Shown piece after piece: positions 21,302 through 51,071 of a stretch of DNA of 64,000 nt. Origin of the DNA: Allorhodopirellula solitaria (GTDB lineage Bacteria > Planctomycetota > Planctomycetia > Pirellulales > Pirellulaceae); assembly GCF_007859855.1 (NCBI RefSeq), contig NZ_SJPK01000002.1, forward strand, positions 429,003 through 493,002, read 5' to 3'. How positions within the stretch are numbered: position 1 is the stretch's first letter; each line of letters opens with the position of its first letter. Position numbers and translations under genes: made by a program. The notes below the pieces were generated by a model. That model worked only from the letters and a program-made list of their open reading frames with translations, was not told the DNA's origin and ran no database searches.

Positions 21302-21480
21302 GCTCTGCTGAGGTGCTGGCTTGGCACGGGACATCCCGGTCGATGGTACGCCAATGGTGTTGCCGGTCCCTGGCGGATACTCGTTCGTCAGGGACGCATT
21401 TTTGCAAGGTCATTGGATGCGAGAGCCATTCCTGGAAAAACCTTCCCCTGTGCTCCGCGTACGCTTCCGTTGGATGAGCC
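21300..21480 (+). mobile_element. Truncated copy of the 318-bp MITE-like element
   Basis: It matches the right-hand 200 bp of the full copy at 51 kb, with one internal deletion of about 19 bp, and retains the right terminal repeat ACGCTTCCGTTGGATGAGCC. The left half and left terminal repeat are missing. The matching begins at GAGCTCTGC, one base into the TGA stop of the lipoprotein gene. Confidence 0.75.
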
Positions 21481-32721: not shown

Positions 32722-32794
32722 GCACTTTGCGTGCCAGCGTCGATTGATTGAGCCCAGACGCGTCAGGAACGTGGGAGAAGTATCCCGTCAGGGA

Positions 32795-33000
32795 TGATAG
32801 AAAATAGCCGGTGGTTTGAGCGCAAGCGAACACCACCGGATACGTCGCAAATCGCAAGAGCCAACCCCGCATGGGGTGGAAGATCATTCATGACGGGATC
32901 TGCGACCCACTTTCGGGGTCGACGTTCGGTGACCAACGAGACACCGCAGGTGGCGCTGCGCTGACCTACAGCTATTCTCGTTTACGCCTTCGGCGTAGGA
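32795..33000 (+). repeat. Dispersed intergenic hairpin modules
   Basis: A chain of small palindromes: AGAAAATAGCCGGTGGTTTGAGCGCAAG...CACCACCGG (inverse match to 36000-36040), ACCCCGCATGGGGT, a GACCCACTTTCGGGGTCGA hairpin, and TACGCCTTCGGCGTA. It fills the space between the SRPBCC-epimerase gene start and the full MITE copy at 33006. No gene is seen in the 658-bp spacer. Confidence 0.6.
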
Positions 33001-33005
33001 AAACC

Positions 33006-33323
33006 GGCTCATCCGACGGAAGCGTGCGCAGAGCACAGCGGAAGTTTTTTTGAGGCATGGCTCTCGTATCCAATGATCGTTCAAAAATGCGTCCCTGACG
33101 AACAAACGCTCGCCAGGGACCGACAACACCATTGGCGTACCGCTTTTGCAGGGAAACGCTGGCGACCGAGATATCCCTTGCCAAGCCAGCACCTCTGCAG
33201 AGCTCGGCTCGGTTTCTCCCGGCAGTGCCAGTCTAACATTGATAATCACATCCCACAAATAAATCCTTCGATACTGGAGCCATGCCTTGAAAACCTCGGG
33301 CGCACGCTTCCGTCGGATCAGCC
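33006..33323 (-). mobile_element. 318-bp MITE-like element, full copy A
   Basis: The left end GGCTCATCCGACGGAAGCG and the right end CGCTTCCGTCGGATCAGCC are inverted repeats with one mismatch; the inverted similarity continues, with gaps, through the TTTTxxAGGCATGGCTC segment about 60 bp in. Flanks are GGAAAACC (32998-33005) and GGAAAACT (33324-33331), a near-perfect 8-bp target duplication. It is exactly as long as the copy at 50711-51028 but inverted, and about 95% identical by eye. The short open frames inside show no start signals or family resemblance, so it is non-autonomous. Confidence 0.88.
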
Positions 33324-33379
33324 GGAAAACTTGCGGGGCTCAACATGACGGCGCCAATATCGAATAGATCAACACGCCA

Positions 33380-34498
33380 TTACCGGGCTGATTCTTGGGC
33401 GAGCCGGATCAGCATGTCCGCACCGCGGCGGAGCGTCTCGTCGCTGGCGGCGAAACTGATCCGGAAGTGGCTGTCCGCTCTGCTGAAGATGTTTCCGGGA
33501 ATGATCAGCAGGCCCTGTGAAATGGCGTGCTCGACAAAGGCGGCTCCACCAGCTGTACCAGGGGCTTTGGGGAATAGATAGAAGGCACCGCCGGGTGAGG
33601 TCAGCTCGTAATGCGGCGACAATTCGCCGACGAGGAAATCACGTTTTCGGCGGTACTCGTCCACGTTGGCCTGCATCGAAACCTCGGTCGCCCGCAGGGC
33701 TCCCCATTGTGCTGGCTGCGGGGCGCAGACAAACGAGAACTGTTGGATCTTCAACATTGTCGCGATCACTTCGGGCGGGCCGTGGACATATCCCACTCGC
33801 CACCCTGTCATCGCGTGCGATTTGCTGAACCCGTCGATCACAATCGTATCGGGATTGTCCGCTGCCGGTGAGTAGAACTCGCCCTCGTAAAAGAAGCGGC
33901 TGTAGATCTCATCCGAGAGCAGGGCGACGTTGTGCTGGGCAGCAATTTCGGCGACCGCTTTGAGGTCCGCTTGGTCGGCTGTCACGCCAGTCGGATTGGC
34001 GGGGCTGTTGACCAGAATCATTTTCGTCTGGGGCGTGATCGCGGCCGCGATCTTATCCGGGTCGAGCCGGAAATCGGGATAGGAATCCACCATCACCGGC
34101 ACGCCACCGGCCAACCGAACGAGCGCCGGGTACATCACAAAGTAGGGATCGAGAAAGATCACCTCATCGCCCGGGTTGACCATCGAGAGCATCGATAAAA
34201 CCAAACCGCCGCTGGTGCCACTGCTGATGAACACATCGCGTTCTTGGTCGGGGTATTTCTCCCGGACTTCTGCTAGGATAGCGTCTCGCAGCGGCGCGAT
34301 GCCCTGGGTCGGCGAGTAGGCGTTTCGCCCGCTACGAATCGCCTCGATGGAAGCTTCCTTAATCGCCTCGGGCACATCAAAATCGGGTTGCCCGATCGAT
34401 AGATTGATCGGGTCTTTGAGTTTCGCGGCCAGATCAAACACGCGGCGAATACCGCTGCTATCGAATGTTTTGGTGCGGTCGGCAATCCAAGGATGCAT
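33380..34498 (-). CDS. Class I/II PLP-dependent aminotransferase
   Basis: A 372-residue fold-type I aminotransferase. Landmarks are NLSIGQPDFDVPEAI, the central NSPANPTGV, SDEIYSRFFYEG (Asp contacting the PLP ring nitrogen), the PLP lysine in DGFSKSHAMTGWRVGY, and the C-terminal Arg in HFRISFAAS. It resembles aspartate/aromatic aminotransferases of the 1-gamma subgroup; exact substrate not readable. Cytosolic. The ATG start at 34498 fits the family. Confidence 0.9.
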   Translation of the reverse strand: MHPWIADRTKTFDSSGIRRVFDLAAKLKDPINLSIGQPDFDVPEAIKEASIEAIRSGRNAYSPTQGIAPLRDAILAEVREKYPDQERDVFISSGTSGGLVLSMLSMVNPGDEVIFLDPYFVMYPALVRLAGGVPVMVDSYPDFRLDPDKIAAAITPQTKMILVNSPANPTGVTADQADLKAVAEIAAQHNVALLSDEIYSRFFYEGEFYSPAADNPDTIVIDGFSKSHAMTGWRVGYVHGPPEVIATMLKIQQFSFVCAPQPAQWGALRATEVSMQANVDEYRRKRDFLVGELSPHYELTSPGGAFYLFPKAPGTAGGAAFVEHAISQGLLIIPGNIFSRADSHFRISFAASDETLRRGADMLIRLAQESAR

Positions 34499-34623
34499 GA
34501 TGGCGGCGTGGGGAAAGTCGTTGAAAGGGACGGGCGAAACACGGTGCAGGCTGGAATTCTACCCTACGTAGTATCGACGTCAAAACATCTTTGTACAGTG
34601 ATCTGATTTGAAAAGGATCTGAA

Positions 34624-35961
34624 GTGAAAATCCTCTTCCTCACCGCCGGAGCCGCTGGGATGTATTGCGGCAGTTGCATGCACGACAACTCGCTCGCCAA
34701 GGCGATGCGGGAGCTCGGCGATGACGTGCTGCTGCAACCGGTCTACACGCCGATTCGAACCGATGAACCCGGCATCGCATCCGATGAAGTATTCTTGGGC
34801 GGCATCCAGGTCTACCTGCTCCAACAATTCCCCCTGCTCCGCTGGGTGCCTCGTGGTCTGCGGTCGTGGTTGGACCGGCCAGGGGTCATTCGGGCTGCCA
34901 CTCGCAAAGCCGTTGGTACCGATCCCGCTCGGCTCGGCGAATTGACCCTCTCGATGCTGAGGGGGGAACACGGTCGACAGGCCAGTGAAGTGGAGCGACT
35001 CGTCCGCTGGCTCGAGACCGAACATCGCCCCGATGCGATCATCCTCAGCAACCTGTTGATCGGCGGCGTGATCCCCTCGATCGCCGAGCGTTTGCCGCAA
35101 ACGAAAATCATCGTTGTGCTGCAGGGCGATGATATCTTCCTGGATCAACTCCCTGAACAGACACGCAGCCAAGCAATCGAACTGTGCCGTCAGCTCGCTG
35201 AAAAAGTCGACACGTTCGTGACCTACAGCCGCTTCTACCGGGACAAGATGAGCGAGCTGCTCGCAATCCCGACGAGCAAGTTCGAGATTCACCCGCTCTC
35301 GATCGACCTGGCTCCCTTTGCTGAACGCGACGAAGCGACATCAGCTGGCCTCCACGGACGAAGCGTGGTTCATGAGAAGCAGGACGGCGAATTTCGCATC
35401 GGCTACTTCGCTCGCATTGCTCCCGAGAAAGGATTGCACCTACTCGCCGAGGCTTTCGAACGAGTTGCCCGTGATCCCGACAATGTGCACATCACGCTGC
35501 ACGCAGCCGGATGGCTTGGCGATCACCATCGGCCGTACCTCGACGAGTTGACCGGAAAAATAGCAGCAGCCGGCCTGACCCACCGATTCCGCTACCACGG
35601 CAGCCCCTCGTTGGAGGACAAGGTCTCGTTGATGCGAAGCTTCGATCTCCTCAGCGTCCCGGCCCCCTACGAGGATCCCAAGGGCCTGTTCCTGCTCGAG
35701 GCCATGGCCGCGGGCGTGCCCGTCCTCCAACCCGCTCATGGGGCCTTTGTAGAACTGATCGAAGCGACCGGTGGCGGAGAATGTTTTGCTCCCCACGACG
35801 TAGGCGAGCTGGCCGAGCGAATTGTTGCCCTCAGCCGCACTGCGGATCGACTGGCCCAGTTCCAAAACTCCGCCAGAGAACAGCTGATTCATTACCACAG
35901 CATCGAGTCAGCCGCCGCTCGCATGCACGCAACCTGCAGCCCATCACCAAGCCCCCAATGA
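34624..35961 (+). CDS. Family 4 glycosyltransferase
   Basis: A 445-residue GT-B glycosyltransferase. It starts at GTG 34624 with KILFLTAGAAGMYCGSCMHDNSLAKAM. The C-terminal donor-binding half has GYFARIAPEKGLHLLAEAF, HGSPSLEDKVSLMRSFDLLSVPAPYEDPKGLFLLEAMAAGVP (the EPxGxxxxEA-like motif as DPKGLFLLEA), and EFCAPHD-like GGECFAPHDVGELAE. It is probably cytosolic and transfers a sugar from a nucleotide donor. It stands alone, divergent from the aminotransferase, so neither pathway nor acceptor can be inferred. Confidence 0.88.
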   Translation: MKILFLTAGAAGMYCGSCMHDNSLAKAMRELGDDVLLQPVYTPIRTDEPGIASDEVFLGGIQVYLLQQFPLLRWVPRGLRSWLDRPGVIRAATRKAVGTDPARLGELTLSMLRGEHGRQASEVERLVRWLETEHRPDAIILSNLLIGGVIPSIAERLPQTKIIVVLQGDDIFLDQLPEQTRSQAIELCRQLAEKVDTFVTYSRFYRDKMSELLAIPTSKFEIHPLSIDLAPFAERDEATSAGLHGRSVVHEKQDGEFRIGYFARIAPEKGLHLLAEAFERVARDPDNVHITLHAAGWLGDHHRPYLDELTGKIAAAGLTHRFRYHGSPSLEDKVSLMRSFDLLSVPAPYEDPKGLFLLEAMAAGVPVLQPAHGAFVELIEATGGGECFAPHDVGELAERIVALSRTADRLAQFQNSAREQLIHYHSIESAAARMHATCSPSPSPQ

Positions 35962-36241
35962 GCCGAGTGCCGTAAGGCACCGAGTGCCACGTTTGTTGAT
36001 CCCGGTGGTGTTCGCTCCGCTCAAACCACCGGCTATTTTCTAAAACGCCTTCGGCGTACGAAGACTTGTGGGTAATCAACAGCTCGTCGGCTCGTTCACT
36101 ACGACAGAAATTGATCGTGCGTTGCTAAGTAGGCATCACGAAACATCGCGGAGGGATCGACGGACAATAGTCGGGGATAAGCGGCGCGACATCCCCGGAC
36201 ACCGAGCCAGCGTATCGTACCGACCCCGAAGCCGTTCTCCG
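35962..36241. repeat. Spacer built of dispersed hairpin modules
   Basis: A 280-bp spacer between convergent genes. It contains GCCGAGTGCCGTAAGGCAC (inverse similarity to 58112-58135), CCGGTGGTGTTCGCTCCGCTCAAACCACCGG (inverse of 32800-32840), ACGCCTTCGGCGT, and TTGTGGGTAATCAAC...CACTACGACA (like 21600-21640). No gene is seen. Confidence 0.55.
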
Positions 36242-38119
36242 TCAGAGTGAATCGCGATGGACAACGGACATCTGTTGGAGTTGCCGGGTGCCGACATTCT
36301 CTAGCCGCACCGTTACCCGGATCGCCTGGGGTGTTTGTACAAACGGCGCCGAGGTTTCTCGTTCACTCGGGTCGTCGGTGCCGTACTCGCCCGGGAACAG
36401 TGTAGGCGCGTTGGTATCGATCCCATCCGCGGCCAAGTCCGTGATACTGGCATCGCCTGCATTGTATTGCTTCCAGTAGGTGCCTCGGAACCGACCCCCG
36501 ATGTACCGCCGTTCTTGATAGAACCCATCACGTTCATACGCCGACGTGTACGTATCGAAGGCGGGTTGGAACAATCGAATCTGATCGCTGCCTGCTATCA
36601 CCAATCGCCCCGATTTGAAAAGTGCATCGGTGTAGGTTTGGTCGGTGGTATTTGCTGGGAACGTCGACGCGGCGGCCAAATCCAAGCCGGAGAAAACCGA
36701 GGACATGCGAGTGATGTTGAGCGTGTCGCTAGCCCCGGGTTCCAGGTTCGGCGTGACTTGGCCTGACGGTGCACCTGGGGAATTGGATACTAGTAGGTCT
36801 TGCCAGCCTCGCAAGGCTCCTCCGGCGAGCACGGGATAGGCCAAATCAACGAAGCCGCCGCCCGGGACGCCGTCGGGGATCAAGGCACCCGTCGGCCCGG
36901 ACAGGACCTGGCGGTAACCCGCGTCACCCGGTCCGACCACCAAGTCGCGCGACGAGAGGTAGAACGCGGCGGTGGGATCAAAAATCTGTAGATCGAGGGC
37001 GCGGCAGTTGTTGGCGATCACGTCTTCGCCACGACGATCTCCGCTCAGCACAAACTCGCGTCGCAGATACCCGCTCCACTTTTGGGGCGTGACCACGGGG
37101 GCGTTGTTCGTGGCGCTTAGAGTTGGACTGAGATTATTCGTGCTGCCTTGGCGAATCAAGCTCGTCGGCTCGAGATCCTCAAGGGCTAGAATCGGCATCG
37201 AGGTGTCCGGTGAAGTTCCGCCCACAATTTGCCCCCAAGGAACGCGCACGTGCGCAAACCGATTGTGCGGCTGAGATAAATCGTCGAGCGAGTTGGCCAC
37301 GACCGCTGCATTCACATTCCGATTCGGTGTGCCGTCTGCATTGAGCTGGCGGCGAATGGAGAGATCGACGATCTGATGAGCGTCACCCATCCCCGTCAAC
37401 CAATCGTTGCCCGCAGTCAATCGGAGACCGACTCCCGATGTGACTGAGTTCAAATCCGGGCGGATCAGCAGCACGCGTCGATACAGCATCACGCGGTCTG
37501 GGATCGAATCATCGTCCGCATCAACAATTGCACCGGTGGTATCACGTTCCGGGTTCGCAAAGTAAACGATCTCGGCATAGCGAGAGCGAATCACGACAGG
37601 TGTGTTGGCAGCAATCTCTGTTGCCGAGCCCGACGCCGGATCGAGCGCCGTGTTGAGAATGTACGCGGGGACTTGGCCCGTGAACCAGGCTCCTGGAGGG
37701 GCGATGGCAGTGAAGGCCAGGTAATCGTCGAGGTCACCGAAACGGCTGTCTTGGGCCACTGTCTGATCATCGATCGTGCTGTATCGACCCAGGATCGTGG
37801 TGGTGGCATCGGTCATCGGACCTTCGTAGTATTCGAAATATCCGTTGGGTTCGGGATCGTCACCGTCGACCGGGTCGAGCGGTACGGTGCAGCGGCGCAG
37901 TTCATCGTTGAGCCGCGTGGTGACATCACGCAGTTCGCTCGATAGCGAAACATTGCCGCGGCTATCGCGCACCCGTTCACCGACAAAAGCGAACGCGCGC
38001 GCTACCGCCGCCATCATCAACAGCGTGATCGCCATTGCAATGAGCATTTCCACGAGGGTGAAGGCAGAACGCGATCGGGTGCGGGTGAGGTGGCGACAGG
38101 GGTTTAAATGGTGCGACAT
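36242..38119 (-). CDS. GspJ-like pseudopilin, enlarged
   Basis: A 625-residue protein with a class III prepilin leader: a basic stretch then RSRSAFTLVEMLIAMAITLLMMAAVARAF, so cleavage is before Phe (with Ala, not Gly, at -1) and Glu5 is present. GspJ proteins are usually about 200 residues and sit in the pseudopilus tip with GspI and GspK; this one is three times longer with a largely beta periplasmic part. The start MSHHLN at 38119 is preferred over an earlier codon. It is the last gene of the pilus block, 185 bp after the GspK-like gene. The GspJ assignment rests on leader type, gene order and size ranking, not on a profile match. Confidence 0.75.
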   Translation of the reverse strand: MSHHLNPCRHLTRTRSRSAFTLVEMLIAMAITLLMMAAVARAFAFVGERVRDSRGNVSLSSELRDVTTRLNDELRRCTVPLDPVDGDDPEPNGYFEYYEGPMTDATTTILGRYSTIDDQTVAQDSRFGDLDDYLAFTAIAPPGAWFTGQVPAYILNTALDPASGSATEIAANTPVVIRSRYAEIVYFANPERDTTGAIVDADDDSIPDRVMLYRRVLLIRPDLNSVTSGVGLRLTAGNDWLTGMGDAHQIVDLSIRRQLNADGTPNRNVNAAVVANSLDDLSQPHNRFAHVRVPWGQIVGGTSPDTSMPILALEDLEPTSLIRQGSTNNLSPTLSATNNAPVVTPQKWSGYLRREFVLSGDRRGEDVIANNCRALDLQIFDPTAAFYLSSRDLVVGPGDAGYRQVLSGPTGALIPDGVPGGGFVDLAYPVLAGGALRGWQDLLVSNSPGAPSGQVTPNLEPGASDTLNITRMSSVFSGLDLAAASTFPANTTDQTYTDALFKSGRLVIAGSDQIRLFQPAFDTYTSAYERDGFYQERRYIGGRFRGTYWKQYNAGDASITDLAADGIDTNAPTLFPGEYGTDDPSERETSAPFVQTPQAIRVTVRLENVGTRQLQQMSVVHRDSL

Positions 38120-38149
38120 GACAAACGGTCGGAGGAAAAGATAAACTTC

Positions 38150-38300
38150 TTCAGCCCCCAAGGGGGCGGCGTGATGACAGCCCAGGGCAACGCCCTGGGG
38201 ATCGGGTTGGCTTGGCGCTAGCGAGGTTTCCGTTTCCGGTGCCCCAGGGCGATGCCCTGGGCTATCCTAGCAACGGCCCGTTGGGCCTCCTCTCTTTAAA
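38150..38300. repeat. Palindrome cluster between gspK-like and gspJ-like genes
   Basis: Four palindromes in about 150 bp: GCCCCCAAGGGGGC, CCCAGGGCAACGCCCTGGG, GCCCCAGGGCGATGCCCTGGGC and ACGGCCCGTTGGGCC. They lie inside the operon, where strong hairpins could attenuate transcription or protect mRNA ends and so set GspK:GspJ ratios. Confidence 0.65.
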
Positions 38301-38304
38301 TTTC

Positions 38305-41300
38305 TCATGGGTAATACCTTTCGAAAACAACGGTGTCGCGGGCGTTTAAGTCTTGGCCGGGGATGAAGCCGACTGGGATCGAGCGGTCGACGATGAACAT
38401 TGCCCGATACCGCTGTGTTTGGCCAGTCGATTCTCCGTACTCTGCCCCCAGATTCGCTGTGTCGTCAGCGTCGACTTCGAAGAAGCCGACGGTCATGCGG
38501 ATCAAGAATGTCTGCGAGTTGTCGGAGGCCAAATTCGGCATCCGCATCAGCGTTTGGTATTTCAAGAACGGGTTCTTGTTGCGATTTTGATACTCGATGG
38601 TCGTCTGTGGAAGCTCGCCTCCAGAACGAACAAACAGCGGCGTGTGCGTCGGCGTCGTGCCACCGGTTCCGGTTTCTTGGTTATCCACCGTGCCTTCCCC
38701 ACGCAGCAATCCGGCGTTGACGTTACGGCGTCGTAACAACAGCGAGTCGTCGTTACCTGAGGTGCTGAGGTCGCGAACTTCCATCCCGAATTTGCCTTCC
38801 GCACTCCGCCGGAAGACGCCCGCAAACTGTGTCGGGAAACGAGGGTCGAGCTGATTGGGTGCGTAGTTTACCGGCGTCGATGAATCCGACAGCAGAACGG
38901 TCGGAACGGGTGTTGTGTTGGGCGGTACATACCCGCGGCGCGTCTGTAGGAACGACTGATATGACAATTGATCGGCATTCGCTGCTCCCGACGCATTGCT
39001 GTATTCTCCCGGGTTCATGTGCCCCTGCATCAATCCTTTCCAAGCCGCGAAGGTTTCGATGGAATTGAGGTTCAGTTTGCCATGACGTTGGTTGTCTTCG
39101 GTGAAGTTAAATGGGGCCGCATAGAGAGGCACCAGAGGTGTCCCTGCAATCCGTGTCGGCAGCATCGCTTTGGACTCGCCCCGATAACGCGGTCCGGTGC
39201 CCACGAGATCAAACAGTGTGCTGAACTCGGCAGCGTTCGCTGGTGAGGTCGCTTTGATGTTTTCACTATTGAAAAAGTTCAGCAGATGGCGGAACGGCGA
39301 CAGGAAGATCGTCGCGTAGGCGGGATCCGTCGATGCCGAGCTGTTTTCCGGGAAAACGGGTGGGTTGGGATTGCCAGGATCGATCACGCTGAACTCTTCG
39401 AGCAGTCGCCCTTGCGAGCACGCAGGCACCATCATCAATTCGTGCGGCGTCGCAAAGGGACGATTCAACCACGGATGCATCGCGAATGGGTTGCGAGGAC
39501 GACCGCGAATGGGTGTGGTCACGGCGTCTGCCATTGGGTCCCAAAACTCACTATTGATGTAATTGAACGTGGTGGCCACGTTCGTGCCGAGGTTGAAGTA
39601 GTCACCGGCGGGCGACATCGGTGCAGAAACCGTGTCCGCGGGTTGTGGCGTCAAACCATAGTTGGTTCGGTAGGAATACAGCAAGTCGACCCCAACGCCG
39701 TCAATACCCTCGCCGGTTCGTTGGCGACTGCCGTTAAGATAGTCCAGTTCCGAAGGGGGGGTGGCCGGGACGTTACCCGTTGCGGTGACATTCGCTGCAG
39801 TATCCTCACCGCTAAACACAGTCAGATCGATGGCGATCTGATCGATCGTGCGGTAGGGGTTGAGCGTTGGATGGAACCCTCGGGTCGGATCGGCCAAACG
39901 TTGCAGAAACGCAGTGCGATAGTTTGGCACCGTTCCCAACATGGGGTCCGCGACGGTCGCCGGGTCGGCTGCGAACGCTTGAGTGAGTTGCTTGATTGGC
40001 CCGTCGACATGCATGTCCTGAGGCCTGTCGAGATAGATTGGAGTTGGAGGAAGAGGCGCGGGTGGTACGACTAATGCTCCCGTATCGTCAAGCTGCACAT
40101 AGGCATCTGTCAAAGGGTAATTCGCGCCCGCGACTTCAGTATATCGCAAATACGGCTCGTCGTAATAGTCACCAGCAATGATCGGCAGCGGTTCGCTTAC
40201 GTTCAAACCGATTCCGTTGGGAAGTGTCGTAGCTGTATTCGTCCAGTCACCTGGCGGAAAACTCGAAATCGCGAGGCTGAGTCCCGGTAAGACTCTCGTG
40301 CTCGTATTGGGCGTTAACAGGGTGTCGGCCGCGTCATACTGGATCAAGCCGACCGATGGTGCCGCGCTGGAGATCTCGAATCTTTGATCACTCGGTGCGC
40401 TGGGGTTGATCGTGTCGGCGTACACCTTCGACCCAAAGTGGGTCGTGAACCGTGGAGCCAACGTGAGATACTGCTCGGGCAGCAGCTCGGCGAGCGTGCC
40501 ACTGCGATTAAAAAATATACCGGCGGGCTGCGTCATATCAGGGATTGGTGCAATCGCAGCATCGAGTTCGCTGTCAATAGCGTAGCTCGTGAACAGCACG
40601 AAGCGGTTCAGGTCCAGATTCGCCGCAGTATCGTTGAGTTCATCCAGTGCGTTGGGATTACCGAGCTCCGGTTGAAACGACTGGGTATCGGGCAAAGTCG
40701 CGCGCAGTTCAAGCGGAGAGCTGCCCGTGCCGACTGGATTGTTGGCAGGATCGGCGGCTTCGAAATGAGGTTCACTGATGCCAACTCGCCAGACAGGCAC
40801 GTCCGCAGAAGCCGTTCCGGTTCCCCAGTTCGTTCCGTTAAAGAGGGTCGGGATCGTTCTCGCCAGGTCGAGCGAATAACTGACACTGGCGCCGCTCGTA
40901 TCGACGTCATAAAGTTCACGAGGAAGGCCAGCAGTATTAGGATCCGCCGCACCGGCCAACACTCGGCGGCGAGGATTGTACAATTCCAGAAACAACGACC
41001 CCTGGGGGATGCGGACCTGATCCATGTCGTCATCCTCATCCGGCGCCGAAGTCCCCTTTTTTCCATCGGTGTCGAGGTTCGTATCTCGAACCCGAAGGTC
41101 GTGAGTCGCATAGGATTCACTGAACAGGAGATCGGGTTGCTCACAACCCCACACGACGGGTGAGAAATTGGTTGGCACCGTCGCACTGGTGCCGAACACT
41201 TCCGTAGCGGGCTGGAGTGTGCCATCGCCATTGATGTCTTCAGCGACCGCCCAACCATCGAACGGGTTGGGGTCGTAGGCGAACCGCGTCATGATGGCAT

Positions 41301-43821: not shown

Positions 43822-43996
43822 CGGATTTGCACTTAAAGACTGAAGAGAAGAGAGAGGGGGGAGAGAGATGGGGGGTATTCCACTCACAAAGCTGCCCCCC
43901 CGGCACTCCGCTGCGAAGAGCAGAGGGTAGGGATGAGGTAGCGTGAACGCGTCAAAGGCCGTGAGGTTTTGCTAAGTAAAAATTCATGTCATGGCC

Positions 43997-45292
43997 TCAG
44001 TTGAAAAAGTCATCGAGTAGGATCGTCTTTTCGTTCACCGCCACGACATCCTCGACCAACGTCGCGTAGGTCAATGAGTTTTGGTTTGCTGCCGTTGGAG
44101 CGTTGTTCGGCGAAAAGTTCCAATCTGGGCCGTCCAACATCACCTTGAGTGACCACACCGTGGTCGATGCGCGCGGGTTGCTGGAATCGGGCGCTGGTAT
44201 GACCGTTCCATCGACCGACGTATTGGCGAGCAGGGGCTGTTCGAAGACCGTGGGGTCCCCGTCGACACCGACGACGCGGTACCAACGGAACACCTGGGAG
44301 GCGATTCGCTTGGCATTCGCATTGGGCGGCGTGGGCCCCGGTAATGTCGTGCGTGAGAGCATCAACCAATCACCGCTGGTGAGTTGTGGCAAGGTGTTGC
44401 CGGAGGACAGAAGCTCGACCGAGCCGCCTGCTCCACCCCGAAAACCCAACCAATTGGTCGCCAACGCGACCCGTTCAGCAACCGCGTTTTGATTCGCGTC
44501 TTCAACCGCTGCTGCAGGGAACTCGGTGGTACGCTCGCGTGATTGATAAATCACGACAGACATTGATGCGTATCGCGATTCCGCGTCCGGATCCACTGTG
44601 ATCATCCAGGAATACGTGCCGACGGGAATGCGTTTGCCAGCGACGATCGCATCGGTTCCCGAGGTTGCCTGCAAACCCGTGAGCACGGCGGGGATGGAGC
44701 GGTCTTTTGGACGCAAGGCGGAGAGATCGTTGGGGCTCTCGACCCACGTTCTCGCGATCTCAAACCGATTGCCAACCGAATAGCCCGTGAAGGCGTTCAA
44801 ACCCACACGTTGCATTCGGGGTTGTCCCTGGAAACCCGGGGACGCCGTGTATGTCGTCGACGGATCCACCAGCGGATCGTGATCGGCTGAGTAAAACGGA
44901 AACAGCGACATGTCGTACTGGCCGTTCATCGCAGGCACTGTGTTGTCTGCGAGCAGAGGATCCAAACAGAACGGCTGGATCACCCGCACGGTGGTCGTTC
45001 CGACGGTGTAGCTGAGATCCTGATTGCCCGTCAGTGCGGCATCACGAATCAAGTTCCGCGCGGCCACTTCGCTGATGACGGCATCGGACATCGCGGCGGC
45101 GGTGTCAAAGTCCATTGCGTCTTGAGCCCGGTGCCCGGCCAGTGGCAGGATCGAAGTCAGGCCAACCAAACCGATGAGGATGACACCGATCGCGAAAGTG
45201 ACTTCGATGAGCGTGATACCGGTGCGCTGGCGACTGCTGGACTGGCGAGTTGCTACGTGAAGCTTGGTATTCATAGTTTCATTCATTTTCAT
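43997..45292 (-). CDS. GspI-like pseudopilin
   Basis: A 431-residue protein with the leader RQRTGITLIEVTFAIGVILIGLVGLTSILPLA; cleavage is after Gly, Glu5 is present, and Ile stands at +1 as in many GspI proteins. GspI is usually about 120 residues, so this is also enlarged. Its start ATG overlaps the preceding gene's TGA by 4 bp (ATGA), supporting 45292; MNTKLH at 45274 is an alternative. It would pair with GspJ and GspK in a tip complex. Confidence 0.75.
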   Translation of the reverse strand: MKMNETMNTKLHVATRQSSSRQRTGITLIEVTFAIGVILIGLVGLTSILPLAGHRAQDAMDFDTAAAMSDAVISEVAARNLIRDAALTGNQDLSYTVGTTTVRVIQPFCLDPLLADNTVPAMNGQYDMSLFPFYSADHDPLVDPSTTYTASPGFQGQPRMQRVGLNAFTGYSVGNRFEIARTWVESPNDLSALRPKDRSIPAVLTGLQATSGTDAIVAGKRIPVGTYSWMITVDPDAESRYASMSVVIYQSRERTTEFPAAAVEDANQNAVAERVALATNWLGFRGGAGGSVELLSSGNTLPQLTSGDWLMLSRTTLPGPTPPNANAKRIASQVFRWYRVVGVDGDPTVFEQPLLANTSVDGTVIPAPDSSNPRASTTVWSLKVMLDGPDWNFSPNNAPTAANQNSLTYATLVEDVVAVNEKTILLDDFFN

Positions 45293-46473
45293 TCCGCCAC
45301 CGTATCGGAGAAGGTTGCGAAGACTCTGGCGGGCTTCAATGCCTCACCGTAGGCCAGAGTCGTCGGGTCAGTGGGATCTGCGGGGATCGTTCCCGGCGTC
45401 GCCATGCTGACCGTGGTGACGCGGCCCGAGGCTGGGTTGACAACAACCCACAGCGAATCCGGGTCCATGATGTTCGTCGTCAGTGTCGAATCTTGCGAGA
45501 ATAGGTTGTCACGATCCGCCGCGGCTGCCCCTTCGACGGAGGCCACACCATCAATCTCACCTACGCAAAAATAGATCAACCCAGTCGGAAACACGCGTGT
45601 GTTGACGGAATTGTAGATCACTTGCGAAACCGCTCCGCTGGCGTTGAAGAGAATGTCAACGGCCCGCGGCAACGTGGCTGGGTCCATGCTCGGTGCAAAC
45701 TGGCTGCCGCCGACGCCGATGCCGGAGTAGTTGAAGTCGATGGCCATTCCCCGCGGCAATGACATGACCCTGCTCGTCGACGCAGCGGGACTGCGTTGGA
45801 TGCGATACTTCACGTTACCACCCGTTGCACTGGTGCCACCCGCCTGTGGAAACCGATTCACGGTCGATCCGGTCGCGCCGACAGCTGTGTTTTCGGCAAG
45901 ATCAAACGTAACGGGGACGGTCGAACCAGCAACTGCACCAATTCCAGTGATCGGTACCGATCGGCCGCCCGGCAGTTCCAGCATGTCTCCCACCTGAATC
46001 GGGGCGAGGTAATCGTTGCTGGGCGTCACCGTATCGTTCAGGATCTGCGAGCTGAGGTAAATCAACGGGCTGTCGGCGGTGTCAAAATTAGCGGTGTTGG
46101 CTGGCGAGCCTGAAAGCGTGGCGACCGCGTTGGCAGCATCCCCAGTGTAGGCGGGCACACCAACGAGCTGTCGTAGCCGTAGCGAGGTCGATCGTGCATA
46201 GTTGCCATTGGCTACCGAACTGAGTCGTTCGAAACGCACGCCAACGGTACGCCCTTCGGCGATCGCTCGGCTGCGGGCGGCATCCATGAACGCCTCGATG
46301 TTCTGCGCCGTCCGCGTCGCCTTTTGATCACTGATCAATCCCTTGACGACCGGCAGAGCGACCGCCACGAGCATCAAGAAGATCACCATCACGATGAGCA
46401 TCTCGACCAGCGTGAAACCGTGCGGGACGCGACTCGGTTTTCGGTTCGGTTGGGTCATGCAAAGGTTATTCAT
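45289..46473 (-). CDS. GspH-like pseudopilin
   Basis: A 394-residue protein with the leader PHGFTLVEMLIVMVIFLMLVAVALPVVKGLI (Gly/Phe cleavage, Glu5), followed by AFMDAARSRAIAEGRTVGVRFERL. That matches GspH/FimT, in which a helix with ARSxAI leads into a beta region. GspH usually has about 170 residues; here a long C-terminal part is added. Four-base overlaps (ATGA) with both neighbours indicate tight translational coupling. Confidence 0.8.
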   Translation of the reverse strand: MNNLCMTQPNRKPSRVPHGFTLVEMLIVMVIFLMLVAVALPVVKGLISDQKATRTAQNIEAFMDAARSRAIAEGRTVGVRFERLSSVANGNYARSTSLRLRQLVGVPAYTGDAANAVATLSGSPANTANFDTADSPLIYLSSQILNDTVTPSNDYLAPIQVGDMLELPGGRSVPITGIGAVAGSTVPVTFDLAENTAVGATGSTVNRFPQAGGTSATGGNVKYRIQRSPAASTSRVMSLPRGMAIDFNYSGIGVGGSQFAPSMDPATLPRAVDILFNASGAVSQVIYNSVNTRVFPTGLIYFCVGEIDGVASVEGAAAADRDNLFSQDSTLTTNIMDPDSLWVVVNPASGRVTTVSMATPGTIPADPTDPTTLAYGEALKPARVFATFSDTVAE

Positions 46474-47642
46474 TGGGAACCCGCCAGTGCATAGTTGGTG
46501 ATATTGTCGGAGACCAGTTCCGTATTGAGCTCTGCACCCGGCAAGGAACTCGGTGCATTGTGTCGCAGGTAGGGGTCGGGAAATACATAGGTTCCTGTGC
46601 GGCCCTCAGCTTCGTCGCCAACGACGACCTTCGTACCCGAATCCATTTCACTGAGTGGCCACGATTGGGTGTTGTAGGAAACTGTGTTGGAACTGAGTGA
46701 CATGCCGAATTCATCGTCGCCGCCAGCCGAGACAATTAGCGGTCGCATGGCCCACGGGAAACCCGCTCCTGAGACGAAATGCCCAAAGTCCACGTGAAAG
46801 GGATCGAAGTCGTCGGGGATCGTTTGGTCGACCAACGCGTCATCATCATTGATGTAGCCCACCGGCCAGCGGATGAAACCGAGAGGCCTGCCCCAACCAT
46901 CGAGGATCTCACGCATCCCATCGCCGTCGGTATCGCCAATACTGGCACTGGGAATTGAATCGATGGCGGGAGATCCGTTGGCGAAGGAAGTGGCCATGAT
47001 CAAATATAGGCATTCAGCACCTTCGTTTTCGGTGGTCCACGTTTGACCGGCACTGAGAAAGCGATCGTAATACGTATACGCCTTCTGAGTTCGCTCCCAA
47101 GCGATCGGCATTTGACGGCGATTAGAGTACTGCCGAATGGCTCGCCCGCTCGTCGTGTCAGACACGACTCGGTTGGCTACCGCCGTGATCGTAACCGCGT
47201 CGGTTTGGACGGGACCGGTCATGTTGAAGACGACGTCGAGCCGTTTGTCGGGCATCTCCATCCGCTGCAGGTCACGGGTCATGATCAACCGCACCCGCGC
47301 CGCTTCGGTTGCCAGCACTTCGAAACTAACCAGCACGTCGGGCGTGGAGGTGTTGTTGTCGTGGTCGACGACTTGACTGAGCGTGGGGATGTCGACTGGT
47401 AATGGCCGGTATTTGTACGATTCATATTGTTCCTGGATCACACTGTCGCAGGCAGCGATAATCGTGCGGGTGCGCGAAGCGCGGGCCGAATTCGTCACAC
47501 CTTGAACCGCAGCGAGGACCATCCCGCCCATCAAGCCAATGATGACCAGGACGACAAGGATCTCGACGAGGGTGAACCCAACGCGTCGATCGCGGTTTCG
47601 ATTGATGACTGTGCTGCGGTCTGACATATCACTCAAGTCCAT
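46470..47642 (-). CDS. Second GspG/pilin-like pseudopilin
   Basis: A 390-residue protein with the leader RRVGFTLVEILVVLVIIGLMGGMVLAAVQGV. The mature part has one long N-terminal helix and a large mixed domain including FGMSLSSNTVSY. It could be a GspG paralogue or a minor pilin. The start is ambiguous: ATG 47642 overlaps the previous gene by 14 bp, while ATG 47627 (MSDRST) leaves a 1-bp gap and may be the real one. Confidence 0.75.
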   Translation of the reverse strand: MDLSDMSDRSTVINRNRDRRVGFTLVEILVVLVIIGLMGGMVLAAVQGVTNSARASRTRTIIAACDSVIQEQYESYKYRPLPVDIPTLSQVVDHDNNTSTPDVLVSFEVLATEAARVRLIMTRDLQRMEMPDKRLDVVFNMTGPVQTDAVTITAVANRVVSDTTSGRAIRQYSNRRQMPIAWERTQKAYTYYDRFLSAGQTWTTENEGAECLYLIMATSFANGSPAIDSIPSASIGDTDGDGMREILDGWGRPLGFIRWPVGYINDDDALVDQTIPDDFDPFHVDFGHFVSGAGFPWAMRPLIVSAGGDDEFGMSLSSNTVSYNTQSWPLSEMDSGTKVVVGDEAEGRTGTYVFPDPYLRHNAPSSLPGAELNTELVSDNITNYALAGSQ

Positions 47643-48789
47643 TGCCTAGCGAGGATTCTGTGAAATTCGTGACGTTGTCCAGGTGCGCGTTGATATTCTC
47701 GCCGCCACCCCACTGACTATCTTGAAAGCCTTGCGAGCCCACATCCGCATTGGTAAATACGAGGCCAGCTGGGGAGGTTGCATCCTCATCGGGCCACATC
47801 GGTACGCCTTGCTCAGTGAAATGCACCGGCAATGCAGCTGTATTGGTAGAATCGATGGAGACGAGTTTGCCAAAAAGCAGATCCGAGCCGGGCGAAATGA
47901 TCTGGAAGGTGTTCGGGTTTTGAAACTTGACAGCATCAAAAGCAGCCTTCTCTGATCCATACGTTGTACCGGAGGGTGGATCGATGGCTTGCCCCGATTT
48001 ATAGGGACGCACGCCGCCGACGGGAGATGCGAGATAGCCGTTGTAGGTGTTCACACCCGAAATCGTGGCGATCACGCCATAGGTCCGCGAATCGAAGTAG
48101 ACGAGCGGTGCGTCGTCGCCTGCGACGGCCCGGTAAGCGGGTAAGATGTCGTTGCCGCCATGGGCGTTGTTGACAACATCCATCAGCGTTTCGTCATTGC
48201 TCAACAGTGGGGAGGTCTGCGACACGCGATTGATGGTCAGCCGTTCGGTATCGAAATCGAAGAATGCATTGTCCCGTGTGGCGTTGTACTGATAGTCCGT
48301 GATGTCTGTCGGCGTTCCGCCGGACACCAGCTCAATCGGGCCGCCCGGTCCGGTCAGTGGGTGCTGAATGTCCTTGCTGAATCCACCTAAGAAAAATACG
48401 AGGGCTTCGGCACGGTCCATTGCCACGCCACTGAAGTCTCCCAGGGTATTGCCGGTTTCGTCGTCCGTGAGCAGCTTGAGCAACGTCGCGTCGGGTTCGG
48501 CCATTCGTGGGAATAGCTTCCGCATGTGCCGCTGCAGTACCGCTTCGCTGCTACCGTCGGGTGGGAAATCACCGTACTTGGCCTCGTACGCCTTGACGGC
48601 TTGATCGAGAGCGTTGATCTCGAGCCGCTGCGCGCCGGTTGTGGCGTTGGACAACGCGTTGCTGATCGCGGGGATCGCGATGCCCATCAGGATGCCAATG
48701 ATCATGATCACGACGAGAATTTCCACAAGCGTGAAGCCACTGCTGGCGGCATGCCGTGGACGACGGTGGGAAGGAGTTGGAGTCATCAT
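47629..48789 (-). CDS. GspG-like major pseudopilin candidate
   Basis: A 386-residue protein with the leader ASSGFTLVEILVVIMIIGILMGIAIPAISNAL followed by EINALDQAVKAYEAKYGDFPPDG. This is the GspG pattern in which the helix is followed by Ala-Leu..Tyr...Gly-x-(Y/F)-Pro. GspG usually has about 140 residues and forms the shaft; here about 240 residues are added, which would be unusual for a shaft subunit. It is first of the pseudopilin genes after the platform protein. Confidence 0.8.
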   Translation of the reverse strand: MMTPTPSHRRPRHAASSGFTLVEILVVIMIIGILMGIAIPAISNALSNATTGAQRLEINALDQAVKAYEAKYGDFPPDGSSEAVLQRHMRKLFPRMAEPDATLLKLLTDDETGNTLGDFSGVAMDRAEALVFFLGGFSKDIQHPLTGPGGPIELVSGGTPTDITDYQYNATRDNAFFDFDTERLTINRVSQTSPLLSNDETLMDVVNNAHGGNDILPAYRAVAGDDAPLVYFDSRTYGVIATISGVNTYNGYLASPVGGVRPYKSGQAIDPPSGTTYGSEKAAFDAVKFQNPNTFQIISPGSDLLFGKLVSIDSTNTAALPVHFTEQGVPMWPDEDATSPAGLVFTNADVGSQGFQDSQWGGGENINAHLDNVTNFTESSLGNGLE

Positions 48790-48840
48790 CGGTCTAGGTT
48801 GTTGTTGAAGGGCGGAATGGTCGCTTCGCGGCGGGTTGTT

Positions 48841-48985
48841 TTTTAGCTATTAGCTTGTTAGCTGCTAGCTATTAGCTTTTTGAGAGGGGTGGAACGCTTC
48901 GCGTTTGGAGTGTGTGGAAACCGGGGCTAACGCCCATCGGCTGATTCAGTTCGCTAGTGGCTAGAAGCTAGAAGCTAATAGCTCG
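48841..48985. repeat. AGCT heptad repeats in spacer
   Basis: Two tracts, 48841-48880 and 48952-48985, consist of AGCT cores spaced mostly 7 bp apart (TTAGCTA/TTAGCTT/GTTAGCT/GCTAGCT; then GCTAGAA GCTAGAA GCTAATA). They lie between the platform gene and the first pseudopilin gene. The same pattern recurs in the spacers at 50.5, 51.1, 53 and 54.2 kb. Confidence 0.8.
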
Positions 48986-48989
48986 CTTC

Positions 48990-50432
48990 CTAGGTCAATC
49001 CTGTAATGAGTTGTACGAGGGGCATGAAGAGTGAGATCACGATAAAACCGACGGCGAGACCGAGGAAGACAATCATGATTGGCTCCATCAGTGCCGTGAG
49101 GCTGTCGGTCATGATGCGGACTTCTTCGTCGTAGGTGTCCGCGACTTTGTAGAGCATCGTGTCGAGTTCGCCGGTTTCCTCACCGACATCGACCATGTTG
49201 ACGACGAGGTCGTCGACCACCCGGCCTTTGATCTTGGTCAGGTAAAACAGGATGCACATCACCATCCCGCCGCCGATCATGTACAACGCCATGAAGGTGA
49301 GCGATTCCACCATCCCGTCTTTGTCGAGTTTGCTGCCCTTGGCAGTCAACGCCACGCTCAGCACCATGATGCCCGGGAACGATCCGAACAGGGCCCAGAA
49401 GACGGCCGCCATGGGGTGGAACCCGAGCACGGAGTGTTCGGCCAGCGGCTTGCTGATGACTTCCCCTTCACGGATCTGCTCGGCGACCTTGGTATAGAGC
49501 TTTTCGAACATCGCATTGCCTGAGGTTTCACGCGTGATGTTCAGACCCTCCATAATCGGTACGCCCGAACTGATCAGCGTGCCGAGGGTTCGGGTGGTCC
49601 GGGCGAGAATGTTCTTTTCGATCAAGGGCCCGAAAATGGGTACCCGCAAGATGAACATGTCGAAACCAATCCGGCCATGTTTGAACTTCCGCATCAACTT
49701 GATCAGAATGAACGCACAGATCGGCATCGCGATCAGCAGGAACCAATAGCTACCGACGTAGTTACTCATCGCGATCAACAGCTGGGTCGGCGCGGGCAGC
49801 GTCAATCCAAACTCGTCAAACATTTTTTCGAACGTGGGGACGATCATGATCATGATGAACGTCAGAATCGCGATCGCCACGGTGACCACGATGACGGGAT
49901 AGATCAACGCACCCTTGACCTTCCGCTTGAGCGACTCGGCGCTTTCGAGGAAGTCAGCAAGACGATTGAGAATCGTTTCGAGAGCACCACCAGCCTCCCC
50001 CGCCTTGATCATGTTGACGTAGAGACGGTTGAAGACCTTAGGGCATTTTCCCATCGCTTCGGAGAGCGTTGCCCCGCCTTCAATTTCGTCGCAAACGTCC
50101 ATCAGGGCATTCTTGAGTTTACCCGGTTTCTGGTTGTTCTCGAGAATCCGCAGGCTGCGGAGAATCGGCAGACCGGCGTCCTGCAAAATCGATAGCTGGC
50201 GAGTGAACGCACAGATATGCTTGGTCTTGGCACCGCCCATCGCAAAGGGGCGTTTCTTCCTTTCACCCGGAGCAGCCGCGTCGCCCGCCGCCTGTTTCTT
50301 GACGGCGATCTTCGTGACGAAGTATCCCATCTGGCGGATGGTGGTTTGCGCCTCATCCTCGTTGGCTGCATCGATCTCGTCCCGGATCTCTTGTCCGGTC
50401 GCGTCCATCGCTTCGAAGGTGTAAATAGGCAT
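48990..50432 (-). CDS. PilC/GspF inner-membrane platform protein
   Basis: A 480-residue protein with two GspF cytoplasmic domains (about 75-200 and 280-410) and three transmembrane segments, near GALIYPVIVVTVAIAILTFIMIMIVP, YWFLLIAMPICAFILI and the C-terminal PIMIVFLGLAVGFIVISLFMPL. The N-terminus MPIYTFEAMDATGQEI is typical. The platform protein couples the ATPases to pilin polymerisation. Insertion of about 50 residues (GDAAAPGERKKRPFAMGGAK) before domain 1 is within family variation. Confidence 0.93.
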   Translation of the reverse strand: MPIYTFEAMDATGQEIRDEIDAANEDEAQTTIRQMGYFVTKIAVKKQAAGDAAAPGERKKRPFAMGGAKTKHICAFTRQLSILQDAGLPILRSLRILENNQKPGKLKNALMDVCDEIEGGATLSEAMGKCPKVFNRLYVNMIKAGEAGGALETILNRLADFLESAESLKRKVKGALIYPVIVVTVAIAILTFIMIMIVPTFEKMFDEFGLTLPAPTQLLIAMSNYVGSYWFLLIAMPICAFILIKLMRKFKHGRIGFDMFILRVPIFGPLIEKNILARTTRTLGTLISSGVPIMEGLNITRETSGNAMFEKLYTKVAEQIREGEVISKPLAEHSVLGFHPMAAVFWALFGSFPGIMVLSVALTAKGSKLDKDGMVESLTFMALYMIGGGMVMCILFYLTKIKGRVVDDLVVNMVDVGEETGELDTMLYKVADTYDEEVRIMTDSLTALMEPIMIVFLGLAVGFIVISLFMPLVQLITGLT

Positions 50433-50433
50433 C

Positions 50434-50557
50434 GCTTCGCTCTGGCTGTTTGATTTTAAGCTATTAGCTACTAGCTTTTTTCAGGAATCGGGTGGTTTGG
50501 ATGGGCTTCGCTTCGCTCTGGCTGTTTGATCTTAAGCTATTAGCTACTAGCTTTCTT
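50434..50557. repeat. Direct duplication of about 48 bp carrying AGCT heptads upstream of pilC/gspF
   Basis: GCTTCGCTCTGGCTGTTTGA, then TYTTAAGCTATTAGCTACTAGCTTTYTT, occurs at about 50436-50480 and again at about 50511-50557. The first copy abuts the start codon of the platform gene. Confidence 0.75.
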
Positions 50558-50710
50558 TCGGACGGCGGAGTCTTTGGGTGAAACTGCGGAGCATTCGCTG
50601 GACTTCGGTGAGTTGGTTATAAGCTGTCTGGTAGGTGGCTGCTTGGCAAACGACGAGTCAGTGGATAAGCCGCCAGCACGAACTGATGTGCCTTCTCCCA
50701 GACTTTTAAG

Positions 50711-51028
50711 GGCTCATCCGACGGCAGCGAGCGGCCGAGGTTTTCAAGGCATGGCTCCGGTATGCAAGGATTTATTTTTGGGATGTGATTATCAATGTTA
50801 GCCTGGCACTGCCGGGAGAAACGGAGCCGAGCTCTGCAGAGGTGCTGGCTTGGCAAGGGATATCTCGGTCGCCAGCGTTTCCCTGCAAAAGCGGTACGCC
50901 AATGGTGTTGCCGGTCCCTGGCGAGCGTTTGTTCGTCAGGGACGCATTTTTGAACAATCATTGGATACGAGAGCCATGCCTCAAAAAACCTTCCGCTGTG
51001 CTCTGCGCACGCTTCCGTCGAATGAACC
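50711..51028 (+). mobile_element. 318-bp MITE-like element, full copy B
   Basis: The left end GGCTCATCCGACGGCAGCG and the right end CGCTTCCGTCGAATGAACC are imperfect inverted repeats. It is flanked by a perfect 8-bp direct repeat CTTTTAAG (50703-50710 and 51029-51036), the signature of transposition. It has the same length as copy A, in inverse orientation. It sits in the 777-bp spacer between the GspE-type ATPase and the platform protein, where no gene is otherwise seen, and so probably separates two formerly adjoining pilus genes. Confidence 0.9.
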
Positions 51029-51071
51029 CTTTTAAGTCGCGAATATCTTTCATTTTCCAATCTCCTTTTTG

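What the first reader, a model, noticed from the sequence alone, without database searches (positions are those of the whole stretch)
33006..51028. A 318-bp MITE-like element with terminal inverted repeats and 8-bp target duplications
Two full copies (33006-33323 and 50711-51028) are exactly 318 bp, inverted relative to each other and about 95% identical by eye. Ends are GGCTCATCCGACGG... and its reverse complement. Flanks are direct repeats: CTTTTAAG perfect at copy B, GGAAAACC/GGAAAACT at copy A. There is no transposase inside. Equal length, inverted ends and target duplications together point to recent cut-and-paste mobilisation by an unknown transposase acting in trans.
Basis: seen in the sequence. 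Interest (0 to 1): 0.75.

Follow-up and report, generated by a model that had tools for sequence, protein, structure and literature searches.

The report
Mobile element carrying structured RNA gene
A 318-base jumping element with many copies in one planctomycete genome carries inside it what looks like a small-RNA gene, and the same RNA is found beside unrelated transposases in related bacteria, although nobody yet knows what it does.

Summary
The two 318-bp copies are real: 95% identical, with inverted terminal repeats (TIRs) and 8-bp target duplications (8/8 at copy B, 7/8 at copy A). The window's genome has 325 TIR-like sites and at least 150 matches to the element's core, the scoring cap of that search. 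It is a MITE of ISL3 type: sister genomes carry intact 1336-bp ISL3 insertion sequences with the same ends, one matching the MITE end over 24 of 24 bases. No intact copy of that helper was found in the window's own genome.

The interior is not junk. It holds a ~136-bp module: a fixed -10-like box, a four-helix RNA with heavy covariation and a terminator-like hairpin. In 24 loci from genomes outside the genus, 96.7% of 480 pair cells are standard pairs, and 80 cells change on both sides against 23.5 +/- 4.7 in shuffles. The RNA model matches 73 of 241 genomes of the family, 29 of 68 genera. The module lies in ISL3-type MITEs and beside IS3, IS110 and ISL3 transposases. Nothing in Rfam 15 overlaps it; two published motifs without Rfam entries could not be compared.

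The element class is known. The RNA module appears new; function and expression are untested.

The parts
33006..33323 (+). MITE copy A, full 318 bp
33006..33029 (+). TIR arm 1 of copy A (GGCTCATCCGACGGAAGCGTGCGC); identical over 24/24 bases to the transposase-upstream end of the ISL3 IS in G007 (L249)
33300..33323 (-). TIR arm 2 of copy A
32998..33005 (.). Target duplication of copy A, left (GGAAAACC)
33324..33331 (.). Target duplication of copy A, right (GGAAAACT)
33253..33258 (-). -35-like TTGTGG of the RNA module in copy A, 17-bp spacer to the -10-like box
   Evidence: consensus match only, and TTG is found in only 14 of 41 module copies
33230..33235 (-). -10-like TAGACT of the RNA module in copy A
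   Evidence: TAnnnT at this place in 33 of 41 module copies
33082..33237 (-). Structured-RNA module in copy A (R2 E 1.2e-25); this subfamily carries an extra ~19 nt near helix P4
33091..33120 (-). Terminator-like hairpin of the module in copy A, T-run on its 3' side (33083-33087)
   Evidence: locus L001 is this copy
50711..51028 (-). MITE copy B, full 318 bp, inverted relative to copy A
50703..50710 (.). Target duplication of copy B, left (CTTTTAAG)
51029..51036 (.). Target duplication of copy B, right (CTTTTAAG)
50797..50952 (+). Structured-RNA module in copy B (R2 E 8.7e-27)
21276..21404 (+). RNA module of a third, degenerate copy whose surviving TIR end lies at 21480

Best explanation
A non-autonomous ISL3-type transposon (MITE) whose cargo is a small structured-RNA gene. 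Anatomy: TIR, inner inverted repeat, promoter-like boxes, ~120-nt RNA (P1 enclosing P2 and a P3 hairpin with a purine-rich, often GNRA-type, tetraloop, then P4), terminator-like hairpin, inner repeat, TIR. Shown by sequence: ends, 8-bp duplications, copy number, an ISL3 IS with the same ends in sister genomes, covariation, and the same module beside unrelated transposases. Inferred: an ISL3 transposase moved the MITEs in trans and its intact gene was later lost here; the module is transcribed from its own promoter and stopped at its own hairpin; the RNA acts in trans, most likely in the interest of the elements (persistence or control of transposition), because it is found in ISL3-type MITEs and IS3 elements and beside IS110 and ISL3 transposases. 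Its target is not known.
For: ISL3 helper: L079 in G005 is a 1336-bp IS with duplication TTATTTAC 8/8 and ends GGCTCATCCGAC; G007 has 5 copies matching all 421 residues without stops, of which L264 has an 8/8 and L249 a 7/8 duplication; a stop-bearing copy in G008, L250, is 8/8; L249's 5' end equals the MITE end 24/24; Pfam and NCBIfam name them ISL3. MITEs elsewhere: L356 314 bp 8/8, L355 297 bp 7/8, and a second TIR type in G007, L344 325 bp 7/8. RNA: (16 sequences) 14 of 20 pairs with both-side changes, 36 cells against 15.1 +/- 3.0; (24 other sequences) 80 cells against 23.5 +/- 4.7, covariation 0.515 against 0.208 shuffled and at most 0.087 slid; G-U against A-C cells 54 to 4 of 480 in A4 and 47 to 18 of 320 in A3. 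TAnnnT at one place in 33 of 41 copies, against 116 of 12,300 random places; terminator-like 33 of 41. Distribution: 73 of 241 genomes. Other carriers: IS3, IS110, ISL3 transposases; IS3 module 124-128 bp from the left end in 10 of 11 loci. Rfam: nothing overlapping the module, apart from a chance-level naRNA4 match, E 3.8. Negative control: of 74 loci none below E 0.1, best 0.15.
Against: No intact helper in the own genome: its two intact ISL3 transposases have different TIRs and are 30% identical to the helper. Another ISL3 transposase could have moved the MITE, or the helper may lie in an assembly gap. The seven strict 304- and 313-bp MITEs of G002 and G009 show no target duplication: 0 of 7 with fewer than four mismatches. 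In one search, 19 of 28 module loci gave no TIR pair with a duplication and 3 gave false ones. G007's L239 and L258 and G008's L240 have none either. Both MITE ends match one IS end better than the other, so it is not a plain internal deletion. The -35 box is weak: TTG in 14 of 41. No expression data. A3's structure was drawn by eye on its own sequences; A4 rows were found with, and aligned to, that model; P4 is the weakest helix (62.5% of cells in A3); in A4 the number of pair types is not above shuffles (30 against 27.7, reached by 89 of 500). The terminator count had no control.
Confidence: 0.8

Rival explanations
1. Ordinary ISL3-type MITE with a non-functional interior; similarity between copies is only common ancestry.
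For: MITE interiors usually have no known function (recalled); 27 selected copies in the own genome are 95.6-99.4% identical.
Against: Both-side pair changes far above shuffles and slid partners in two sequence sets; G-U excess on one strand; fixed -10-like box; module in IS3 elements and beside IS110 transposases.
Confidence: 0.06
2. The hairpins are kept as DNA (protein or transposase binding, cruciforms), not as RNA.
For: Hairpins near transposon ends can act as DNA (recalled); the inner inverted repeat resembles the box upstream of the module in IS3 and IS110 loci (read by eye).
Against: G-U cells outnumber A-C cells 54 to 4 in A4 and 47 to 18 in A3; well conserved unpaired stretches (GAAACGGA, AAGGGAUA); promoter-like box and terminator-like hairpin on the same strand.
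Confidence: 0.1
3. The RNA gene is an insertion hot-spot: IS elements land beside it rather than carry it.
For: Several unrelated transposases lie beside the module; for the IS110 loci (L318, L372, L376, L377) and the ISL3 locus L373 the element ends were not defined.
Against: In MITEs it lies between TIRs with target duplications; in IS3 loci it lies 124-128 bp from the left end in 10 of 11.
Confidence: 0.12
4. The module is an already described but uncatalogued motif, such as Rhodopirellula-1 or Transposase-resistance (Weinberg et al. 2010, no Rfam accession shown).
For: Both names stand in the 2010 table without an Rfam number; Rhodopirellula-1 is listed for Proteobacteria and Planctomycetes (PMC2864571, two table passages).
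Against: The motifs themselves are not in the held text, so no comparison was possible. G004, whose size equals that recalled for R. baltica SH 1, has only one match.
Confidence: 0.15

Closest known systems
ISL3 insertion-sequence family (IS204/IS1001/IS1165/IS1096)
   Same: 8-bp target duplications, TIRs starting GG (family rule recalled), helper transposase over the Pfam and NCBIfam ISL3 cut-offs.
   Different: The MITE has no transposase, both of its ends resemble one end of the IS best, and it carries an RNA module; of 9 ISL3 IS loci searched with R2 none matches below E 0.01, best 0.035.
QMITE1 and QMITE2 of Coxiella burnetii (PMC5896051, abstract and outline seen)
   Same: MITEs reported to give rise to small RNAs; QMITE1 has sigma-70 promoters.
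   Different: About 50 copies per family; the abstract reports no module shared across IS families. Here the RNA model matches 29 genera, and covariation was tested in 24 genomes of 14 genera besides the window's genus.
High-copy bacterial MITEs: Correia, ERIC, Chunjie (PMC10969869, passages seen)
   Same: Short and multi-copy; ERIC reaches 711 copies in Photorhabdus, so copy number alone is not new.
   Different: The words ISL3 and Planctomycet do not occur in the main text of that review.
IS110-family bridge RNA (recalled, not looked up)
   Same: A structured non-coding RNA inside an IS; some loci here have IS110 transposases.
   Different: The same RNA also sits in IS3 elements and ISL3-type MITEs, and runs antiparallel to the transposase gene in the IS110 loci read, so it is unlikely to be an IS110 guide.
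Rhodopirellula-1 and Transposase-resistance RNA motifs (PMC2864571, table rows only)
   Same: Planctomycete or transposase association by name.
   Different: Could not be compared.

Membership tests
MITE | Short, no transposase inside | tested here: met
   318 bp; related sizes 93, 300, 313 bp
MITE | Terminal inverted repeats | tested here: met
   24-nt arms, 96% complementary
MITE | Target duplications | tested here: met
   own genome: 11 of 30 perfect, 10 of 30 with one mismatch; 2 of 10 perfect in the unselected set; but 0 of 7 in the G002/G009 relatives
MITE | Many dispersed copies | tested here: met
   325 TIR sites, at least 150 core matches
ISL3 family (mobilised by) | 8-bp duplication and GG-starting TIR | tested here: met
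   family rule recalled
ISL3 family (mobilised by) | Autonomous ISL3 IS with the same TIR in the genus | tested here: met
   L079 and L249; 24/24 end match for L249
ISL3 family (mobilised by) | Autonomous helper with the same TIR in the same genome | tested here: not met
   only a 53-residue remnant at 53% identity in C4, plus ISL3 copies without these TIRs or broken; the assembly has 62 contigs, so a gap is possible
ISL3 family (mobilised by) | Transposition shown | not testable with these tools
   needs a bench assay
Structured non-coding RNA | Covariation above controls | tested here: met
   rows of A4 found with and aligned to the model
Structured non-coding RNA | Promoter and terminator | tested here: inconclusive
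   TAnnnT 33 of 41, TTG 14 of 41, terminator-like 33 of 41 without control
Structured non-coding RNA | Transcript | not testable with these tools
   no expression data held
Rfam family | Match at gathering score over the module | tested here: not met
   (only tRNAs in a flank); relaxed searches
Rhodopirellula-1 / Transposase-resistance motif | Fits the published consensus | not testable with these tools
   consensus not in the held text

The most novel reading that the evidence does not exclude
A new class of transposon-borne regulatory RNA: one structured RNA gene that has spread as an exchangeable module among ISL3-type MITEs, IS3, IS110 and ISL3 elements of one bacterial family, acting in trans for the elements that carry it.
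Probability: 0.5. Interest if true: 0.88.

Novelty: new variant of a known kind. Interest (0 to 1): 0.72.

Why it matters
MITE interiors are usually taken as filler. Here the interior holds an RNA whose base pairs co-vary and which lies in or beside unrelated transposon families. If it is transcribed, it raises a testable question: why would ISL3, IS3 and IS110 elements, which move by different chemistries (recalled), keep the same RNA? It also gives a natural case of many copies of one putative small-RNA gene scattered, mostly outside long reading frames, through one genome, and a covariance model with which to look for it elsewhere.

Tried and rejected
IS1595 helper: no match in the own genome. 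The own genome's intact ISL3 copies L061 and L062 as helper: their TIRs differ. The first RNAalifold structure and its model R1 were replaced by a structure drawn by eye after more copies were seen. A universal host RNA was considered: R1 finds nothing in 6 of 13 genomes of the genus. Rows dropped: one search cut 37 matches to 24 (under 85 nt, or over 93% similar to a kept row); A3 used 16 of those 24, leaving out 8 with insertions, deletions, truncations or a weak match. A reading frame through the interior was noticed but not tested. Plasmid records searched with the L360 module and phage records searched with the MITE: no match. A 20-base exact core pattern hit 3 viral contigs, but with R2 one has only a partial match (positions 18-69, 32.5 bits) and the other two match 22 bases; not counted as carriers. 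A base-exact empty site was not obtained. Structure prediction of proteins was not used.
Full report
WHAT WAS CHECKED. Both 318-bp copies are at the given coordinates, 95.3% identical and inverted to each other. Copy B has CTTTTAAG on both sides; copy A has GGAAAACC/GGAAAACT. The arms pair over 24 bases, with an inner inverted repeat of 31 nt. A third, degenerate copy lies at about 21276-21480.

COPY NUMBER. In the window's genome (6.80 Mb, 62 contigs) a full-length search scored 40 of 238 first-look candidates, all at 97-100%. A 23-base TIR pattern with up to 3 mismatches gives 164 forward and 161 reverse sites, with none for the reversed control. The strict form (perfect 14-base ends 298-328 bp apart) occurs 47 times here, 6 times in G002, once in G009 and in none of the other 10 genomes of the genus. 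The first RNA model gave 150 matches here, the number it was allowed to score. TIR-pair sizes on contig C1: 93, 300, 317, 318 (five), 615 and 2306 bp. The 604-, 615-, 711- and 2306-bp forms contain foreign inserts.

TARGET DUPLICATIONS AND SITES. Of the 30 copies most like copy A, 11 are perfect, 10 have one mismatch, 1 has two and 8 have four or more. Among 10 unselected pairs on C1, 2 are perfect, 3 have 2-3 mismatches and 5 have five or more. The left 8-bp flank is 74.6% A+T against 42.2% in the loci, and 5 of 29 insertion points lie in open frames of 900 nt or more against 60% of 1200 random points. Against the simple picture: the seven strict 304- or 313-bp relatives in G002 and G009 show no duplication (0 of 7 with fewer than four mismatches). 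For copy B, both flanks are found near each other in all 12 other genomes of the genus with no MITE match listed between them. For copy A the right flank is found in all 12, but both flanks lie close together only in G007, 1.8 kb apart (list cut). Spacers are diverged, so there is no exact empty site.

THE HELPER. IS1595 is absent. ISL3 transposase matches exist in the own genome (14); the intact ones have other TIRs. A search of 98 genomes, 8 with a match, led to L079 in sister G005: 1336 bp, ends GGCTCATCCGAC, duplication TTATTTAC on both sides, open transposase. Within the genus (13 genomes, 11 with some match) G007 has five copies and G005 one that match all 421 residues without stops; G008 has none unbroken over its full length; the own genome has a 53-residue remnant at 53% identity besides distant ISL3 copies. 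Of four G007 copies whose ends were examined, L264 has a perfect and L249 a 7/8 duplication, L239 and L258 none; of two stop-bearing G008 copies, L250 is perfect and L240 has none. L249's transposase-upstream end equals the MITE end over 24 of 24 bases; the other IS end matches over 20 bases at 85-90%. Pfam and NCBIfam call the proteins ISL3. More distant ISs also start GGTTCATCC: L160 (Singulisphaera MAG) and L176 (Verrucomicrobia MAG), each with 8/8 duplications; of 20 distant loci scanned for such ends, 7 gave ends with at most one duplication mismatch and 13 gave none. So the 'unknown transposase' is most likely of this ISL3 type, and its intact gene seems to be gone from the genome where the MITE is most numerous.

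THE INTERIOR. Copies from G002, G004, G007 and G009 are diverged in the flanks but share a core. Aligned cores and a structure drawn by eye give P1 enclosing P2 and P3, then P4, with well conserved unpaired stretches GAAACGGA and AAGGGAUA. On 16 distinct sequences, 14 of 20 pairs have both-side changes and 36 cells change on both sides, against 15.1 +/- 3.0 in shuffles; covariation is 0.369 against 0.209 shuffled and at most 0.127 slid. Because that structure came from those sequences, I tested 24 loci not in that alignment, from 24 genomes outside the genus: 96.7% of 480 cells paired, 80 both-side cells against 23.5 +/- 4.7, score 0.515 against 0.208 shuffled and at most 0.087 slid; 11 pairs with both-side change (4 of 500 shuffles reach this) and 30 further pair types (89 of 500 reach this). 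Caveat: these rows were found with the model and aligned to it. G-U against A-C cells are 54 to 4 there and 47 to 18 in the first set, as expected for RNA read from this strand.

SIGNALS. Of 41 module copies (24 from outside the genus, 17 from within), 33 have TAnnnT at the same place just upstream of P1 (random places in the same loci: 116 of 12,300); 14 have TTG at a 16-18-bp spacing; 33 have a terminator-like hairpin by my thresholds, without a control. The summed promoter score averages 7.05 against 5.11 in random places.

DISTRIBUTION AND CARRIERS. The second model matches 73 of 241 genomes of the family at E <= 0.001, 29 of 68 genera; at most 13 candidates per genome were scored, so copy numbers there are lower bounds. 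Control: 74 loci around distant ISL3 relatives, by their titles mostly outside this family, have no match below E 0.1, best 0.15. Of 28 module loci scanned for TIRs with duplications, three outside the own genome were convincing (L356 8/8; L355 and L344 7/8; L344 with another TIR, GGTCCATCCGGG) and three in the own genome; 3 hits were false and 19 loci gave nothing, L297 and L357 of G009 and G002 among them. IS3: an integrase-type transposase beside L313, L359, L360 and L362 by Pfam; the module lies 124-128 bp from the left end in 10 of 11 loci (one with a weak end, L364), and the whole element is 1.69-1.72 kb in the 7 with both ends found. IS110 transposases lie beside L318, L372, L376 and L377, and an ISL3 transposase beside L373. 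L362, L372 and L373 pass the NCBIfam cut-offs for IS3, IS110 and ISL3. The RNA runs antiparallel to the transposase gene in these loci; the gene lies downstream of the RNA in the IS3 and IS110 cases and upstream in L373. Element ends were not defined for the IS110 and L373 cases. Several loci (e.g. L358, L363, L365, L368) were not assigned to a carrier. The 1336-bp ISs themselves lack the module: 9 ISL3 loci, best E 0.035.

KNOWN OR NEW. Rfam 15: nothing overlaps the module at gathering score in the window or in 7 loci (two tRNAs in a flank). At relaxed E-values the window copy has one chance-level match (naRNA4, E 3.8), and 16 loci have a flanking tRNA and two weak matches outside the module. 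Literature: the listings of searches for ISL3 with MITEs, Rhodopirellula with MITE, planctomycete MITEs, structured RNAs with transposases, Rhodopirellula small RNAs, MITE sRNAs, RNA motifs with Pirellula and the two motif names showed no paper on this element. MITE-borne small RNAs are known in Coxiella (PMC5896051, abstract and outline; PMC10969869, passages). Two 2010 motifs shown without Rfam numbers, Rhodopirellula-1 and Transposase-resistance, are named in PMC2864571 (table rows only) and could not be compared; this is the main risk to novelty.

MECHANISM. Most likely: an ISL3 transposase binds the shared ends, moves the 318-bp element into A+T-rich, mostly intergenic sites and makes 8-bp duplications (anatomy shown, action inferred). 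Inside, RNA polymerase starts at the conserved box and stops at the hairpin, making a folded RNA of about 120 nt (inferred). Because the RNA goes with different transposases, and does not precede the transposase gene on the same strand as a riboswitch would in the loci read, a trans-acting role for the carriers is the best guess (about one in three); a benefit to the host is not excluded.

Noticed in passing
window 32780-32980, beside copy A: Short dispersed hairpin repeats that match places in the own genome and in most genomes of the genus (partly cut list); a CGCCTTCGGCG hairpin with a UUCG loop lies nearby at 32985-32995. Possibly the Rhodopirellula-1 motif; that link is a guess.
   Followed up: no
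L152 10628-11231 (C14) and C1:358855-359469: A second repeat of about 313 bp with its own inverted ends (GAATGGCGTGGACTTAAGC) nested inside the 318-bp MITE.
   Followed up: partly
G000:C4:413053-413763 (L148): A third repeat with ends TAGTGGTCTGTCAC nested in a MITE copy; a similar end seems to abut the copy in L005.
   Followed up: no
C1:365005-367310: A MITE split by a longer insert that I read by eye as IS110-like (not scanned against Pfam); the insert contains unresolved bases.
   Followed up: no
L063 (C8:121771-125484): The first 177 bp of the MITE joined directly to the middle of an L061-type ISL3 transposase; ambiguous bases, so perhaps an assembly chimera.
   Followed up: no
starts of contigs C2, C9, C13, C14, C31, C38, C52: The RNA core match begins at base 285 or 286 of each of these contigs, so the assembly seems to break near MITE copies.
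   Followed up: no
G002 L091: Left 106 bp of a relative of the helper IS (90% identical) directly followed by a MITE end.
   Followed up: no
G002 L300 and L306: Two MITE copies share the same left flank ATTTAGTG although neither has a target duplication.
   Followed up: no
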